Shown: positions 6,819-40,226 of the stretch, in pieces
How positions within the stretch are numbered: position 1 is the first letter of the stretch
How the letters are laid out: each line of letters opens with the position of its first letter
Source: an uncultured Veillonellaceae bacterium
Lineage (GTDB): Bacteria > Bacillota > Negativicutes > Selenomonadales > Selenomonadaceae
Reading direction: 5' to 3'
Assembly: GCA_902766015.1 (NCBI GenBank)
Contig: CACXCC010000083.1
Span: forward strand, 1 to 41,593
Length of the DNA stretch: 41,593 bases
Notes under the pieces: model-generated
Told to the model about the DNA's origin: nothing
Database searches by the model: none
What the model saw: the letters and a program-made list of their open reading frames with translations, nothing else
Position numbers and translations under genes: made by a program

Positions 6819-7008
6819 GGTGGATAACTTGACGTCAGTGCCGCCTTGTCCACGGAAAACCTGTTGATAACTTTACCTGATTCTGATAAGATATTGTTGA
6901 TTACATTGCGGATAACGTGTCAGGTCGAATTCGCCCGTTCCCCGTCACTTTGCCTCTCGGCGGGAAACGGGCAAAGTTATCCACAGCTGTGGATAATAAT
7001 GTGGATAA
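6819..7008. other. oriC part 1: DnaA-box cluster upstream of dnaA
   Basis: Three perfect TTATCCACA boxes lie at 6977-6985 (+), 6988-6996 (-) and 7000-7008 (-); the first two form the palindrome TTATCCACAGCTGTGGATAA. Weaker boxes are at 6819-6827 (-), 6862-6870 (-, TTATCAACA) and 6907-6915 (-, TTATCCGCA). The region between rpmH and dnaA contains no gene. In Firmicutes this is the upstream half of a bipartite origin and also the site through which DnaA represses its own gene. A TATACT (7043-7048) may be the dnaA -10; no clear -35 was found. Confidence 0.88.
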
Positions 7009-8530: not shown

Positions 8531-8740
8531 TGTGGACAAGTCTGGGAGTACCGCGTGGATGAAATGTGGATAAAGGGCGGGAGAGGTTATCACCGTGAAT
8601 TCTGTGGATAACTTCTCCCGCTCTTTGCACGGCATTATCCACAACCGGAATGTGTGCATATTCCCGCACCGCCCGCCTTATCCACATTTCCACAGCCCCT
8701 ACTACTACGACGACTATTTTTTATTATATAGATATACGAC
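8531..8740. other. oriC part 2: DnaA boxes, DnaA-trio-like repeats and AT-rich unwinding element
   Basis: The dnaA-dnaN gap (8517-8764) holds perfect boxes at 8565-8573 (-), 8603-8611 (-), 8635-8643 (+) and 8678-8686 (+), plus TTGTCCACA (-) at 8531-8539. After the last box comes a short GC block, then CTA CTA CTA CGA CGA CTA (8699-8716), then an AT tract (8717-8740). This order of boxes, GC cluster, trinucleotides and AT-rich DNA matches the basal unwinding system described for Bacillus, in which DnaA strands form on DnaA-trios. I infer that melting begins near 8717. Confidence 0.85.
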
Positions 8741-22321: not shown

Positions 22322-22566
22322 GCAGAGGGGGCGGCGATACCGGGCGGACTGACTGAGATTAAGTTTCCTGTATAAGGCGCAGAAGGAGCGGCGGCAACGG
22401 ACTTCGTTCCTGCTGCAGGCTAAACGTCAGACGGTTTCCCTTAATATTGTCGCCCTGAATCAAACCGCTTCGCTTAAACAATTCAGGGCTCCGTGGGAAA
22501 CCGTCTGACGTTCTTCACGCCTGCTGACGCAAAAGTCACTCAGTCCGCTGCCGCCGCTCCTTCTGC
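22322..22566 (-). repeat. Nested inverted-repeat element, copy 1 (reverse, with extra half-arm)
   Basis: Outer arms 22379-22402 and 22543-22566 pair over 24 bp with one G-T. An inner stem 22423-22440/22495-22512 is a perfect 18 bp, and a third stem 22452-22460/22481-22489 closes a conserved loop (TTTAAGCGAAGCGGTTTGA when read in reverse). A degenerate extra copy of the outer arm lies at 22322-22357. The element occupies the gap between convergent gyrA and the malic enzyme gene; apart from it and the terminator after it the gap holds nothing I can see. Confidence 0.9.
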
Positions 22567-24347: not shown

Positions 24348-25568
24348 TTATTGCGTTTTACCGGATTCGCTGCCGCGGACCGGGGCGACAACATCATTGG
24401 AGCCGGCAGGCTTTGACGTAACGGGAGCGCTCTTTTCCTGAACCTCGCGGCTCTCGGTCTCACGGCGGGTTGTCGAAGAAGAATGGGATGTTTCCTCTCT
24501 CCGTTTCATCGTTGACGACGTCGAGGACGACGACTTTTTCGTTGACTCGGTGCTTGCGCCCGGACCCGGTTCGGTCTTGGCATTTGCCGGGATCGAGTTC
24601 TTGTATTCCTTCAGCGTCTTTTCAAGATGTTCGCGGTTCGTCGAATCCATCTGGATGCCGAGCGTATCGGCGAGTGAATGACGCAATTTATCGACGTCCG
24701 GAATCCAGTAGCTGACACCGTCGATGTAGAGCGGCGTGCCCGGGACCATATCGGTCTTGAGGCCGTTTTTCTGCGCTTCCTTCAGCGTGCCGGCGAATTC
24801 GAGGATCTGACGGACGGAAAGGTCGGTGCGAACGGACTTGGATACTTCACGGATAACAGACGGCAGCTGCGGGATGATCGACGGTGACGTGATCTTGTCC
24901 ATGCAGGCCTTCATAAACTTCTGTTGACGCTTGATGCGGCCGATATCGCCTTCTTCATCGCGGTAACGGACGTATGTGATGGCTGTTTTGCCGTCCATAT
25001 GCTGCATGCCCGGATGCAGGTCGATGATGAGTCCGCCGTCATCGTCCCACGGGTCTTCGTAGTACATGCGCTTTTCGACGTCAATGTCAATGCCGCCGAT
25101 CGCGTCAATGATCTTCTGGAATGCCTGGAGATTGACGATGACATAATGATCCATGTTGACGCCGAGGAAGTTTTCGACCGTATCCTGTGTCAATTTTTCG
25201 CCGCCGTAAGCGAAAGCGGCATTGATCTTGTCAAAACCGTGTCCTTTGATGCGCACGCGTGTGTCACGCGGGATCGAAAGCAGGGCGGCCTGATTTTTCT
25301 TCGGGTCAAGCGTCGCGATCATCAGCGTGTCACTGCGGCCGACGTCATCGGCGCGTTCGTCGACACCCATGATCATGACGGTCGTTTTGTCATGTGATGT
25401 GAGCAGGCCTTCCTCGACGACATCGTCCGGGGAACGGTCAAGCAGACTGCTTGACGCGAAAAGCGCACCGAGAGCGGCTGCGCCGATAAAGACGAACAGC
25501 AGGATGACCCAAGGCCAAATTCGGCGCCTGCGTGATTCGCGCCGCGGCGGTATCGGATTGTATTGCAA
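24348..25568 (-). CDS. LytR-CpsA-Psr (LCP) family protein
   Basis: LCP proteins transfer polymers such as teichoic acids or capsule onto peptidoglycan. This 406-residue protein has a basic N-terminus, one membrane segment (about 18-41), and an extracellular LCP domain with DKTTVMIMGVDERADDVGRSDT, LLSIPRDTRVRI, and YVRYRDEEGDIGRIKRQQ (catalytic arginines). The last 60 or so residues are a Ser/Thr/Glu-rich disordered tail. I place the start at TTG (25568) with AGAAGG 8 nt upstream; the frame stays open further up but includes the promoter region. Its exact polymer substrate is unknown, and in a diderm Firmicute it may differ from teichoic acid. Confidence 0.9.
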   Translation of the reverse strand: MQYNPIPPRRESRRRRIWPWVILLFVFIGAAALGALFASSSLLDRSPDDVVEEGLLTSHDKTTVMIMGVDERADDVGRSDTLMIATLDPKKNQAALLSIPRDTRVRIKGHGFDKINAAFAYGGEKLTQDTVENFLGVNMDHYVIVNLQAFQKIIDAIGGIDIDVEKRMYYEDPWDDDGGLIIDLHPGMQHMDGKTAITYVRYRDEEGDIGRIKRQQKFMKACMDKITSPSIIPQLPSVIREVSKSVRTDLSVRQILEFAGTLKEAQKNGLKTDMVPGTPLYIDGVSYWIPDVDKLRHSLADTLGIQMDSTNREHLEKTLKEYKNSIPANAKTEPGPGASTESTKKSSSSTSSTMKRREETSHSSSTTRRETESREVQEKSAPVTSKPAGSNDVVAPVRGSESGKTQ

Positions 25569-25626
25569 CGGTTCTACCTTCTTTTCTGCTGAAATATATA
25601 GTATACATACACAACGATTATCTCTT

Positions 25627-25655
25627 ATTATACGTAGCGCGCCCGATTTGTGCAA
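25627..25655 (-). promoter_or_regulatory. Promoter for the LCP gene
   Basis: On the minus strand: TTGCAC (25655-25650), a 17-bp spacer and TATAAT (25632-25627), about 60 bp before the TTG start. Confidence 0.7.
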
Positions 25656-25766
25656 TGATTCTTTTTCGGGCAGACAGCTCCTATTATTTAATTTTACGGT
25701 TCAAAGGTGAAAAGAGGATGGCGGAACGGTTAAGATCGGATTAAAATTAACGGTGAGGTGATGATC

Positions 25767-26231
25767 ATGAAAGAGATCGAACGAAAATTTCGCGTCAAAC
25801 CGTACTGGAAGCCGCAGGACGAAGGAACGTATATCGCACAGGGATATCTTTCCGTTGTCCCCGAACGCACCGTACGCGTGCGCCTGCGCGGCGACAAGGG
25901 GTATTTGACGGTCAAAGGAAAGAATGTAGGCATCAGCCGAGCGGAGTACGAATACGAGATTCCTTCGAAAGACGCGGCGGAACTGCTCAAACTCTGTATC
26001 CCGCCTGTCATCGAAAAACGGCGCTATCTGGAACAACACGGCGGCTTTACCTGGGAAATCGACCGCTTCGCCGGTGTCAACGAAGGACTCACGGTTGCCG
26101 AAATCGAACTTCCCGCTGTCGACACCGTGTTCGCCCGTCCGGACTGGCTCGGCGAAGAAGTATCCGGCGATCCCCGCTATTACAACGCCAATCTCGTCGA
26201 ACACCCGTATACGACATGGAAAACGAAATAA
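25767..26231 (+). CDS. CYTH domain protein (inorganic/thiamine triphosphatase family)
   Basis: The 154-residue protein begins with MKEIERKF, the E-x-E-x-K signature of the triphosphate tunnel (CYTH) fold. It has the expected alternating charged strands (TVRVRLRGDKGYLTVKGK, WEIDRFAGVNEGLTVAEIEL). Single-domain bacterial CYTH enzymes usually hydrolyse inorganic triphosphate, and a few act on thiamine triphosphate. The ATG at 25767 is chosen because it puts the signature at the N-terminus and is well placed for GAGGTG; GTG 25758 and ATG 25761 are alternatives. It stands alone, with the third DnaA-box cluster starting directly after it. Confidence 0.88.
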   Translation: MKEIERKFRVKPYWKPQDEGTYIAQGYLSVVPERTVRVRLRGDKGYLTVKGKNVGISRAEYEYEIPSKDAAELLKLCIPPVIEKRRYLEQHGGFTWEIDRFAGVNEGLTVAEIELPAVDTVFARPDWLGEEVSGDPRYYNANLVEHPYTTWKTK

Positions 26232-26239
26232 GGCTGCGG

Positions 26240-26474
26240 TTATCCACAAACCTTCGTGGAAATATCGGGGCATCAGCCACAAAATATGGGATATTGACAA
26301 ATTTTTTTACCGTATATCTTGGGTTATCCACCGATTTATCCACATTATCCACAGATTTGACGTCAGTTTTGTACACGATATACACAACAGCTGTGTATAT
26401 TTATTGTAAGAAACTCGTAAAAACGGGAACTGCGCGGACAGGTTATCCACAGCTGTGGATGGATTTGTGGATAA
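26240..26474. other. Third DnaA-box cluster, outside oriC
   Basis: Perfect TTATCCACA boxes at 26240-26248 (+), 26336-26344 (+), 26345-26353 (+), 26443-26451 (+) and 26466-26474 (-); near-perfect at 26324-26332 (+) and a degenerate one at 26454-26462 (-). The last three have exactly the order, orientation and spacing (0, +11, +23) of the three-box core at 6977-7008. AT-rich stretches lie at 26291-26317 and 26380-26405. No gene is present between 26232 and 26945; the rest of the gap holds two inverted-repeat elements and a 52-nt spacer. Confidence 0.85.
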
Positions 26475-26510
26475 CGAAACTGTGTTTGCCTTATAAAGAA
26501 CGGTAACAAG

Positions 26511-26693
26511 ACGGGCGTGCGGGAAGGACGCGGATGACACACTGCCGGCTAAACGTCAGACGGTTTCACTCAATTGAGTCGCCCCATTGTTAAACGCGCT
26601 TCGCTTGAACGAAACAACGGGGCTCCGTGTGAAACCGTCTGACGTTCTTAACGCCTCAAGCAGCAAAGCCATCCGCGTCCTTCCAGCACGCCC
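26511..26693 (-). repeat. Nested inverted-repeat element, copy 3 (reverse)
   Basis: Outer arms 26513-26536 and 26670-26693 pair with one mismatch. The inner stem 26552-26569/26629-26646 is a perfect 18 bp and nearly identical to that of copy 1 (ACGTCAGACGGTTTC core). The third stem (26581-26591/26613-26623, one mismatch) closes the conserved loop. It faces copy 4 across a 52-nt spacer (26694-26745). Confidence 0.9.
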
Positions 26694-26745
26694 TCATGTT
26701 TCTTTGTACACGAAAGTCAACATATGCCTTAGTGAAGTAACCTAA

Positions 26746-26919
26746 GGGATCATGGGGCTCTCTCTGATGCCGTTGCTGAAAAAGCGTAAAGAAAAAAATC
26801 CGTTTTCGCCCTGTCGACTGTTTCTTTTAAGCGCAGCGGTTTGAAACAGTCGACATAAATTAAGCGAAAACGGATTTTTTTAGCGACAGCTCAGGCAGCA
26901 GAGAGAGCCCCATGATCCC
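26746..26919 (+). repeat. Nested inverted-repeat element, copy 4 (forward)
   Basis: Perfect 21-bp outer arms (26746-26766/26899-26919), an 18-bp inner stem with A-run and T-run (26792-26809/26864-26881) and an 11-bp third stem (26813-26823/26844-26854) around the conserved loop. It ends 27 nt from the PTS stop codon and could act as its terminator. Confidence 0.92.
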
Positions 26920-26945
26920 GCCTAGGATGTACTTTAGCTCATATG

Positions 26946-28844
26946 TTACTTTTCGTGCACCGGTTTTTTCCAGATTCCCATGAAGATGCAGCCAATGACA
27001 GCGCCGACAAAAACAGCGAGGATGAAATAGAGCGGATAACCGATAGTCGGGACGACGAAAATGCCGCCGTGCGGCGCGCGCAGCGTACAGTCAAGTGCCA
27101 TCGACATGCCGCCCGCGACGGCGGAACCGATGACACAGGACGGGAGAACGCGGATCGGATCGCTCGCGGCAAACGGAATCGCTCCTTCCGTGATGAACGA
27201 AAGTCCCATGATATAGTTCGTGAGACCGGCGCGGCGTTCGGCCGGGGTAAAACGGTTGCGGAAAAACGTCGTGCAGAGTGCGATAGCGAGAGGAGGAACC
27301 ATGCCGCCGGCCATTACGGCCGCCATCACGTGATATTCTCCCGACGCGAGCAGTCCCGTTCCCGTCAAATACGCGGCTTTATTGACCGGACCGCCCATGT
27401 CAACCGACATCATGCCGCCGAGGATGAGTCCCATGAGCACGCGCGCTTCGGGATTGAGTGTACTGAGTGCGTCAATGAGCCAGAAATTGAGAGCCGTACA
27501 GGGCGGCGCGATAATAAAGAAACCGATGAGGCTGACGATGAGAATGCCGAAAAACGGATAGATGAGAATCGTCTTGATACCGTCAAGTGACGCCGGCAAA
27601 TGACGGCAGATGAGTTTGAGACGCCGAACCGTATATCCTGCCGCAAAACCCGCGATCATCGCGCCGATAAATCCGGCATGGGTTGCCTGCATGATCGCGC
27701 CGCCGACAAATCCGACGGCGAGACCGGGACGTTCGGAGATCGAACGCGCGATAAAACCGGACAATACCGGCAGCATAAAACCGAAAGCGAGATCGCCCGT
27801 ATCCTTGAAAAACTTGGCGATCGGGCGGTTTGAGCCGAAGTTGGCGGGATTGAGTGCGTAATCGTCAAAGAGAAATGCGAGCGCGATGAGAATGCCGCCG
27901 CCGACGACAAACGGCAGCATATGGGAAACGCCGTCCATGAGGTTTTTGTAGATTTGACGCGCAAGACCTTCCTGCTTGACGGGAAGATCCTGTTTGACGT
28001 CATCCGTTTCATCGGTGCCCTGATAGACGGGGACTTTGCCTCCGAGTGCCTGATCGATGAGTTTGTCCGCATTGCGGATGGCGTCATCGGCCGAACACAT
28101 GAGGACGCGGCGTCCGCGGAACCGTTCCATGGGGACGGTTTTGTCTGCGGCAACAATGATTGCCTCGGCGTTGGCGATTTCGTCATACGTCAGACGATTT
28201 TTGACACCTACGGCGCCGTCAGTTTCGATCTTGACGGCGATACCGCGTTTTTCCGCGCGTTCACGCAGATTTTCCGCGGCCATATACGTATGGGCAATGC
28301 CGGTCGGGCAGGCCGTAACGGCAAGCAAACGCGGCATCGGCCTTGCTTCACGGGCCTGCTGCCAAACGTCTGCTTCCGTACTGAATTGTTCCTGCTCCTT
28401 ATGATGAAGCAGCGAGAGGAATTCGTCCGTGTCCTTTGCCGCGATGAGTCCGTCTTTGAGTTGCGGATCCATGAGGCAGGTCGCGAGACGCGAGAGAATC
28501 GTCAAATGTTCGTCACTCGCATCATCCGGCGCGGCGATAAGGAAAAACAGGCGGGCGGGATTGCCGTCGAGTGAGTCAAAGTCAACGCCTTCAGGGATTG
28601 TCATGGCGACGAGAGACGCGTGTTTGACGCCGCTGCTTTTCGCGTGCGGCGTGGCGATGCCGTCGCCGAGTCCCGTCGATCCCTGCGATTCGCGTTCAAA
28701 GACATCGTGACGGTATTGACCGGGATCCGAAAGTTCGCCGGATTTCACCAGACAATCGACAAGCATGTTGATGGCATCTTTTTTATTTTTTGCCGTCGCC
28801 CGCAGCAGAATTCGCTCGGGCGGCAGCAGATCGGTTATCAGCAT
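26946..28844 (-). CDS. Fructose-type PTS transporter, EIIA-EIIB-EIIC fusion
   Basis: A single 632-residue chain with three PTS parts in order: EIIA (about 1-150) with phospho-histidine H67 in ATPHAKS; EIIB (about 170-270) with cysteine C179 in TACPTGIAHTYMAAE; and EIIC (about 300-632) with roughly eight to nine membrane segments. It imports and phosphorylates a sugar of the fructose/mannitol class. The usual partners, 1-phosphofructokinase and a DeoR-type regulator, are not adjacent, and no HPr or EI gene is in the window. The ribosome binding site is AAGGAGG. Fructose is the likely but unproven substrate. Confidence 0.92.
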   Translation of the reverse strand: MLITDLLPPERILLRATAKNKKDAINMLVDCLVKSGELSDPGQYRHDVFERESQGSTGLGDGIATPHAKSSGVKHASLVAMTIPEGVDFDSLDGNPARLFFLIAAPDDASDEHLTILSRLATCLMDPQLKDGLIAAKDTDEFLSLLHHKEQEQFSTEADVWQQAREARPMPRLLAVTACPTGIAHTYMAAENLRERAEKRGIAVKIETDGAVGVKNRLTYDEIANAEAIIVAADKTVPMERFRGRRVLMCSADDAIRNADKLIDQALGGKVPVYQGTDETDDVKQDLPVKQEGLARQIYKNLMDGVSHMLPFVVGGGILIALAFLFDDYALNPANFGSNRPIAKFFKDTGDLAFGFMLPVLSGFIARSISERPGLAVGFVGGAIMQATHAGFIGAMIAGFAAGYTVRRLKLICRHLPASLDGIKTILIYPFFGILIVSLIGFFIIAPPCTALNFWLIDALSTLNPEARVLMGLILGGMMSVDMGGPVNKAAYLTGTGLLASGEYHVMAAVMAGGMVPPLAIALCTTFFRNRFTPAERRAGLTNYIMGLSFITEGAIPFAASDPIRVLPSCVIGSAVAGGMSMALDCTLRAPHGGIFVVPTIGYPLYFILAVFVGAVIGCIFMGIWKKPVHEK

Positions 28845-35008: not shown

Positions 35009-35101
35009 AATGGCGTCGACGTCATGTCAGAAGGCAGACGTACGATGAATGGTTATTCATGTTGACAAAACTCGCAGCCCGTATCCTTAGGGAACGGGAC
35101 T

Positions 35102-35175
35102 GTCCGCCATATGCTTCGGGAAAACTATGCCCTTTTCCGGTGCGTCGGACATTCTGTGAGTGTCCCGCAGGGACG
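35102..35175 (+). other. Structured leader upstream of yhdT-panF
   Basis: GTCCG (35102-35106) with CGGAC (35146-35150) and, nested, GGAAAA (35119-35124) with TTTTCC (35133-35138) form a branched hairpin. A GTCCC/GGGAC hairpin follows at about 35161-35175, close to the ribosome binding site. The open frame through it (from 35059) lacks coding character. It could be a cis-regulatory RNA; I do not match it to a known class. Confidence 0.45.
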
Positions 35176-40097: not shown

Positions 40098-40104
40098 GTA
40101 TCAT

Positions 40105-40226
40105 CGATATATTGACGGTAAATCCCTACGTTGGCATTGCCCAAATCAGGTCGTAACGGGTCGAAGGGCATACCTTCCTCTCAGCGTGTCTGCAGGCTCC
40201 CCGTACTGCAGAAAAGGCTGCAGTAC
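40105..40226 (-). ncRNA. TPP (thiamine pyrophosphate) riboswitch
   Basis: On the minus strand the THI-box landmarks appear in order: GGGGAGCC, CTGAGAGG (CTGAGA at 40184-40179), ACCTGATTTGGGCAATGCC and CAACGTAGGGA (40133-40123). These are the pyrimidine- and pyrophosphate-binding parts of the aptamer. An extra perfect 9-bp hairpin (40203-40211/40218-40226) precedes it. The riboswitch controls thiSGHE. Confidence 0.95.

What the first reader, a model, noticed from the sequence alone, without database searches (positions are those of the whole stretch)
26240..26474. A third DnaA-box cluster 19 kb from dnaA that repeats the oriC core
Five perfect TTATCCACA boxes lie within 235 bp after a CYTH gene. 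The last group has box starts at 0, +11 (opposite strand) and +23 (opposite strand), exactly as at 6977, 6988 and 7000 in oriC, with TTATCCACAGCTGTGGAT shared; two further boxes are directly abutting. AT-rich stretches lie between boxes. This could titrate DnaA (like datA or the Bacillus DnaA-box clusters), reactivate it (like DARS), or be a relic or auxiliary origin.
Basis: partly seen in the sequence, partly recalled or inferred. Interest (0 to 1): 0.78.

Follow-up and report, generated by a model that had tools for sequence, protein, structure and literature searches.

The report
NrdR-operated DnaA-box cluster near oriC
About 18 kb from the replication origin of a Selenomonadaceae bacterium lies a non-coding cluster of binding sites for the replication initiator DnaA, joined to a paired site for NrdR, the repressor that senses the DNA building-block dATP; it has been kept in 85 related genomes even where its neighbouring genes were lost, so it may tie replication control to nucleotide supply.

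Summary
The cluster is real. Five perfect TTATCCACA boxes (and one single-mismatch box) lie at 26240-26474, where chance predicts almost none. The 'same triad as oriC' claim is partly right: the +11 box here is CCATCCACA (two mismatches), although the 32-nt triad pattern occurs only twice in the window and is conserved just upstream of dnaA in relatives.

First, a canonical tandem NrdR operator (26277-26292 and 26309-26324, 16-bp spacer) abuts the direct DnaA boxes. A matrix built only from ribonucleotide-reductase promoters ranks it first in the window (19.8; best unrelated pair 6.1; shuffles at most 12.5). Second, the composite element (NrdR x2 + DnaA boxes at 0/+12/+21) is a single-copy locus in 85 of 189 Selenomonadaceae genomes (23 of 30 genera). 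It is usually 3-61 kb from dnaA and persists where CYTH upstream or mgtC-cdd downstream has been lost.

Best explanation: an oriC-proximal DnaA-binding control locus (like Bacillus DnaA-box clusters in role) whose DnaA loading is gated by NrdR-dATP. Binding and effect are inferred. Main rival: a doubly regulated mgtC-cdd promoter, now a remnant in the window. An auxiliary origin is unlikely (no DnaA-trio, no skew turn). New variant of a known kind.

The parts
26240..26248 (+). DnaA box a, TTATCCACA, perfect
26277..26292 (+). NrdR box 1, CCACAAAATATGGGAT; the six core positions C4, A6, A8, T9, T11, G13 of the NrdR consensus are kept here and invariant in 34 aligned relatives
26309..26324 (+). 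NrdR box 2, ACCGTATATCTTGGGT; 16-bp spacer to box 1; G13 kept, C4 replaced by G in the window
26324..26332 (+). DnaA box D1, TTATCCACC (1 mismatch), shares one base with NrdR box 2
26336..26344 (+). DnaA box D2, perfect, +12 from D1 (3-bp spacer, as in the E. coli nrdA double DnaA box)
26345..26353 (+). DnaA box D3, perfect, abuts D2
26397..26413 (+). degenerate copy of a conserved AT-rich motif (TATATTATAGWAGGAAA; within 4 mismatches in 21 of 27 relatives, 44-46 bp before the triad); role unknown
26443..26451 (+). DnaA box T1 of the triad, perfect
26454..26462 (-). degenerate triad box T2, CCATCCACA (2 mismatches)
26466..26474 (-). DnaA box T3 of the triad, perfect
25758..26231 (+). CYTH-domain gene upstream; usual but not obligatory neighbour of the element
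24348..25655 (-). LytR-CpsA-Psr gene; the most constant syntenic neighbour of the element
26946..28844 (-). PTS fructose IIABC gene, convergent; stands where mgtC-cdd stand in most relatives
6977..7008 (+). oriC triad (rpmH-dnaA intergenic region), the pattern repeated at 26443-26474
8531..8707 (-). dnaA-dnaN intergenic oriC part: DnaA boxes plus DnaA-trio TAGTAGTAG (8699-8707, minus strand), which the 26-kb element lacks

Best explanation
The feature is a conserved, single-copy, non-coding control locus near oriC in which a tandem operator for NrdR (the repressor that binds DNA when loaded with ATP plus dATP) is fused, in fixed helical register, to an array of high-affinity DnaA boxes. Shown here: the sites, their spacing, their conservation, the presence of NrdR, and independence from any one neighbouring gene. 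Inferred: DnaA occupies the array and so reduces the DnaA available to oriC (titration, as for Bacillus DnaA-box clusters), and NrdR-dATP, which bends DNA sharply at each box and shares a base pair with the first direct DnaA box, changes DnaA loading, so that nucleotide supply modulates initiator availability close to oriC. The sign of the effect (NrdR aids or blocks DnaA) is not known. Where mgtC-cdd follow, the same sites may also control that promoter.
For: Boxes far above chance. NrdR pair is the top pair in the window with a matrix trained only on ribonucleotide-reductase promoters, and the top pair within +/-1.2 kb in 48 of 55 elements. Box spacing equals the published 15-16 bp optimum. 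Full-length model matches (at least 39 bits) in 85 of 189 family genomes, 23 of 30 genera, one per genome (one weaker second hit in G074 has no NrdR pair). Only partial, DnaA-half matches of at most 36 bits outside the family. Boxes carry 1.0-1.7 bits per column, the linker 0.30. Kept when CYTH is lost or when mgtC-cdd are lost. 40 of 41 same-contig cases lie 3-61 kb from dnaA. NrdR present in 118 of 123 genomes outside genus g13; g13 (66 genomes) has neither intact NrdR nor the element. Triad shared with oriC.
Against: No binding or replication data exist for any member. NrdR box 2 of the window lacks the conserved C4. The ancestral layout puts the element where an mgtC-cdd promoter would be. 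Genera g6, g8, g10 and g30 have NrdR but no full element. In G019 (419 kb) and G010 (at least 300 kb) the element is not close to dnaA. Proximity to oriC may simply follow from local synteny. g13 is one genus, hence one evolutionary event, and DnaA itself was not found in 3 of the 4 g13 genomes tested.
Confidence: 0.5

Rival explanations
1. The element is the regulatory region of an mgtC-cdd (MgtC-like, cytidine deaminase-like) operon, controlled jointly by NrdR and DnaA as E. coli nrdAB is. In the window the operon has been lost and the element is a remnant or serves another transcript.
For: Most common order is LCP(-) CYTH(+) element mgtC(+) cdd(+). Cytidine deaminases belong to nucleotide metabolism. 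Several ribonucleotide-reductase promoters here pair NrdR boxes with DnaA boxes. E. coli nrdA carries a double DnaA box and an NrdR site.
Against: The full element persists with no co-directional mgtC-cdd next to it in the window, G010 and Mitsuokella, G017, G019, G027, G004 and several g22 species, with box scores as good as in genomes that keep the genes. No sigma-70-like promoter found in the window's intergenic region.
Confidence: 0.3
2. A plain DnaA titration cluster as in Bacillus subtilis, with NrdR playing no part in replication control.
For: Outside oriC, oriC-proximal, several high-affinity boxes; deleting six such clusters in B. subtilis causes early initiation (PMC5295017).
Against: The NrdR boxes are conserved at fixed register with the DnaA boxes across 23 genera, which plain titration does not need.
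Confidence: 0.12
3. A datA- or DARS-like site that changes the nucleotide state of DnaA, with NrdR as the DNA-bending partner in place of IHF.
For: NrdR bends DNA sharply at each box, as IHF does at datA/DARS2; fixed register of boxes; close head-to-head and direct box pairs.
Against: No biochemical evidence; in B. subtilis no locus is known to change DnaA nucleotide state.
Confidence: 0.1
4. An auxiliary or relic replication origin.
For: Repeats the oriC triad; AT-rich; a conserved TATATTATAGWAGGAAA motif with two trio-like triplets stands 44-46 bp before the triad in most relatives.
Against: No run of three DnaA-trios near the boxes, while the dnaA-dnaN region has one; cumulative GC skew turns at dnaA-dnaN, not at 26 kb.
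Confidence: 0.04

Closest known systems
oriC-proximal DnaA-box clusters of Bacillus subtilis (Okumura et al. 2012, via PMC5295017)
   Same: Clusters of DnaA boxes outside oriC and, by the title of the original paper, close to it; proposed to hold DnaA away from oriC.
   Different: Here the cluster carries a tandem NrdR operator in fixed register and a copy of the oriC triad, and is one specific locus conserved across genera.
E. coli nrdAB promoter (DnaA plus NrdR control; PMC12176259, PMC11317965)
   Same: NrdR box pair together with a double DnaA box of 3-bp spacing.
   Different: No ribonucleotide-reductase gene follows; more DnaA boxes; oriC-proximal; kept without a conserved downstream gene.
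E. coli datA and DARS1/DARS2
   Same: Non-coding DnaA-box loci; a DNA-bending protein (IHF there, NrdR proposed here) sits among the boxes.
   Different: No relation by descent shown; effect on the DnaA nucleotide state untested; located near oriC.
Bipartite oriC (rpmH-dnaA-dnaN) of the same genome
   Same: Shares the 0/+11/+23 box triad.
   Different: Lacks the DnaA-trio unwinding element and the skew turning point; has NrdR boxes that oriC lacks.

Membership tests
NrdR operator | two 16-bp palindromic boxes matching those of ribonucleotide-reductase promoters of the same family | tested here: met
   pair score 19.8, best in window; 0 of 2000 intergenic shuffles reach it
NrdR operator | 15-16 bp spacer (about three helical turns centre to centre) | tested here: met
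   16 bp in the window; starts mostly 31 bp apart in relatives; literature value
NrdR operator | conserved C and G nine positions apart in each box | tested here: inconclusive
   box 1: 34 of 34 aligned sequences including the window; box 2: 21 of 34, the window has G instead of C
NrdR operator | NrdR encoded in the same genome | tested here: met
   G000:C19:7059-7499, 216.5 bits over a 124.65 cut-off
NrdR operator | stands in front of a ribonucleotide-reductase operon | tested here: not met
   neighbours are CYTH and PTS genes in the window, mgtC-cdd elsewhere
Bacillus-type DnaA-box cluster | several DnaA boxes outside oriC | tested here: met
Bacillus-type DnaA-box cluster | near oriC | tested here: met
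   17.8 kb from the end of dnaA to the core in the window; 40 of 41 same-contig cases within 61 kb
Bacillus-type DnaA-box cluster | bound by DnaA; deletion advances initiation | not testable with these tools
   needs ChIP-seq and deletion
datA / DARS | promotes DnaA-ATP hydrolysis or ADP release with IHF | not testable with these tools
   biochemistry needed; IHF sites not searched
replication origin (oriC) | DnaA-trio unwinding element next to DnaA boxes | tested here: not met
   no run of three trios near the boxes at 26240-26474; present at 8699-8707
replication origin (oriC) | GC-skew turning point | tested here: not met
   minimum of cumulative skew at 9-11 kb, none at 26 kb

The most novel reading that the evidence does not exclude
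A dNTP-gated initiator reservoir: NrdR loaded with ATP and dATP binds next to and across the first direct DnaA box, bends the DNA, and sets how much DnaA is held near oriC, so that the cell's dATP level acts directly on replication initiation through a dedicated non-coding locus, independently of ribonucleotide-reductase transcription.
Probability: 0.3. Interest if true: 0.88.

Novelty: new variant of a known kind. Interest (0 to 1): 0.72.

Why it matters
How bacteria match initiation of replication to the supply of deoxynucleotides is still open. A conserved site that puts the dATP sensor NrdR and the initiator DnaA side by side near oriC, away from ribonucleotide-reductase genes, would be a physical link between the two and can be tested with one deletion and two ChIP experiments in cultivable Selenomonas or Mitsuokella. 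It would also give NrdR a role beyond its known ribonucleotide-reductase promoters.

Tried and rejected
Auxiliary origin: rejected on missing DnaA-trio and skew. Chance cluster: rejected. Element tied to the CYTH gene: rejected, because in genus g22 and in G024, G201, G203, G004 and G023 it stands without CYTH, and in G015 CYTH lies downstream. Element as a repeat: rejected, one full copy per genome. Riboswitch or known RNA: no Rfam match in the region. Sigma-70 promoter in the intergenic region: none found, though a TTGACA lies between the NrdR boxes with only about 15 bp to a TATCTT. Pattern search ATATNTDGNRTTATNNAC was too loose in AT-rich genomes; replaced by the profile model R1. A DnaA tree does not settle gain versus loss: it needs five changes and has long branches.

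Full report
OBSERVATION. Five perfect TTATCCACA boxes lie at 26240, 26336, 26345, 26443 (+) and 26466 (-), with a one-mismatch box at 26324. The window has 12 perfect boxes against 0.09 expected and the whole 2.04-Mb draft has 30 against 2 for the reversed control pattern. The boxes begin 9 bp after the stop codon of a CYTH gene and lie in the convergent intergenic region 26232-26945. The claim that the last group copies oriC exactly needs correcting: the +11 site is CCATCCACA (2 mismatches). Even so, the pattern TTATCCACA-NN-TGTGGAT-N5-TGTGGATAA occurs only twice in the window, at 6977 and 26443, never in 20 shuffles at up to 4 mismatches, and the same triad stands just 5' of dnaA in many relatives.

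THE HIDDEN PART. Aligning the region downstream of CYTH in relatives showed two further conserved AT-rich motifs 5' of the direct boxes. They match the tandem operator of NrdR: 16-bp palindromes with a 15-16 bp spacer (spacing from PMC12051234; conserved GC pairs nine positions apart from PMC9110341). To test this without using the element itself, a matrix was built only from box pairs upstream of ribonucleotide-reductase genes in the same family. Those pairs were picked with the NrdR consensus recalled from the literature, so the test is independent of the element but not of that consensus. With this matrix the pair 26277/26309 scores 19.8 and is the best in the 41.6-kb window; the best unrelated pair scores 6.1, the maximum over 40 shuffled windows is 12.5, and 0 of 2000 shuffles of the intergenic region reach it. 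In 48 of 55 element loci the pair at this exact place is the best within 1.2 kb on either side. In box 1, C4 and G13 are kept in 34 of 34 sequences; in box 2, G13 is kept in 32 of 34 and C4 in 21, and the window has G there, so its box 2 may bind more weakly.

ARCHITECTURE. From 5' to 3': box a; NrdR box 1; 16 bp; NrdR box 2, whose last base is the first base of DnaA box D1; D2 at +12 (a 3-bp spacer, the 'double DnaA box' geometry bound in vivo at E. coli nrdA, PMC11317965); D3 abutting at +21; then a gap of 87-91 or 95-98 bp in most genomes, about one helical turn apart; then the triad. Within the gap a motif TATATTATAGWAGGAAA stands 44-46 bp before the triad in most genomes and is degenerate in the window; its role is unknown. 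Box columns carry 1.0-1.7 bits, the NrdR linker 0.30.

DISTRIBUTION. A sequence-only profile (model R1) finds a full-length match (at least 39 bits) in 85 of 189 Selenomonadaceae genomes and 23 of 30 genera (counted from the table), one per genome; a second, weaker hit in G074 has no NrdR pair. In a sample of 200 genomes of the class, matches outside the family reach at most 36 bits and cover mainly the DnaA half. The element is therefore family-level. The last common layout appears to be LCP(-) | CYTH(+) | element | mgtC(+) | cdd(+), followed by PTSfru(-). Flanking genes have been lost piece by piece: mgtC and cdd in the window, G010, Mitsuokella jalaludinii (L062), G017, G019, G027 and G004; CYTH in G024, G201, G203, G023, G004 and genus g22; in some g22 genomes a convergent TPR gene now follows. 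The element remains in each case. The mgtC and cdd names rest on sequence likeness seen in the translations; they were not confirmed by a family search.

POSITION. On contigs that carry both, 40 of 41 genomes have the element 3-61 kb from dnaA (median 30 kb), on either side; G019 has it at 419 kb. Draft contigs bias this towards short distances, but among genomes of at most 10 contigs 10 of 11 are within 61 kb; a further one, G010, has dnaA and the element on different contigs with the element about 300 kb from the nearer end of its contig. Synteny alone could keep it there.

NrdR LINK. NrdR is encoded in this genome and in 118 of 123 family genomes outside genus g13; the five without it include incomplete assemblies, three of which carry the element. 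None of the 66 g13 genomes has an NrdR above the cut-off, and none has the element. This fits dependence on NrdR, but g13 is one genus and DnaA itself was not found in three of four g13 genomes tested, so the co-absence is suggestive only. Genera g6, g8, g10 and g30 have NrdR and no full element.

MECHANISM. [quoted passage not shown]). Bound here, it would share a base pair with D1 and deform DNA beside D2-D3. DnaA on five to seven boxes near oriC would hold initiator away from oriC, as proposed for the clusters of B. subtilis, whose combined removal causes early initiation (PMC5295017). The most likely working is thus a DnaA-binding control site whose loading depends on NrdR-dATP. That DnaA and NrdR bind, that they affect each other, and the sign of the effect are inferred. 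The main rival is a doubly controlled mgtC-cdd promoter of the E. coli nrdAB type. It explains the ancestral position but not the repeated retention after gene loss, and no sigma-70-like promoter was found in the window's region. An auxiliary origin is unlikely: no DnaA-trio run near the boxes, whereas the dnaA-dnaN region has one, and the skew minimum is at dnaA-dnaN.

KNOWN OR NEW. No paper in the held library was found that describes an NrdR operator joined to a DnaA-box cluster outside ribonucleotide-reductase promoters; the library lacks most subscription journals. It works like a DnaA-box cluster and is built like an nrd promoter without an nrd gene. It is filed as a new variant of a known kind.

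Noticed in passing
window 26506-26700 and 26736-26925; further copies near 22413, 24103, 30032, 30269, 32842, 34087, 34278, 36943: A dispersed family of roughly 190-bp long palindromic intergenic repeats (about 70-85% identical), also present on other contigs of the genome (L144, L141, L205, L060).
   Followed up: partly
G000:C34:49637-49744 (L143:7638-7745): Another cluster of four perfect DnaA boxes with a 0/+23 head-to-head pair, just upstream of an Orn/Lys/Arg decarboxylase gene followed by thymidylate kinase; conservation not tested.
   Followed up: partly
G000:C22:2863-2934, G000:C75:5502-5546, G000:C8:7317-7368: Smaller DnaA-box clusters beside mscL, beside a flavin reductase gene and near a phage-type integrase gene.
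   Followed up: no
genus g13 genomes G012, G113, G124, G142 (L328): In this 66-genome genus no NrdR passes the cut-off; DnaA was not found in three of four near-complete genomes, and the one found (L328) is divergent, with no dnaN match in the 1.5 kb held beside it and no perfect DnaA box. Possibly a lineage with unusual replication initiation.
   Followed up: partly
G000:C66:2879-2957 (L148), L194, L195, L196, L208, L212: Some ribonucleotide-reductase-related promoters of the family combine NrdR box pairs with nearby DnaA boxes, as E. coli nrdAB does.
   Followed up: partly
window 35016-35106 and 40104-40213: A pan motif upstream of a pantothenate symporter gene and a TPP riboswitch upstream of thiamine genes.
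   Followed up: no
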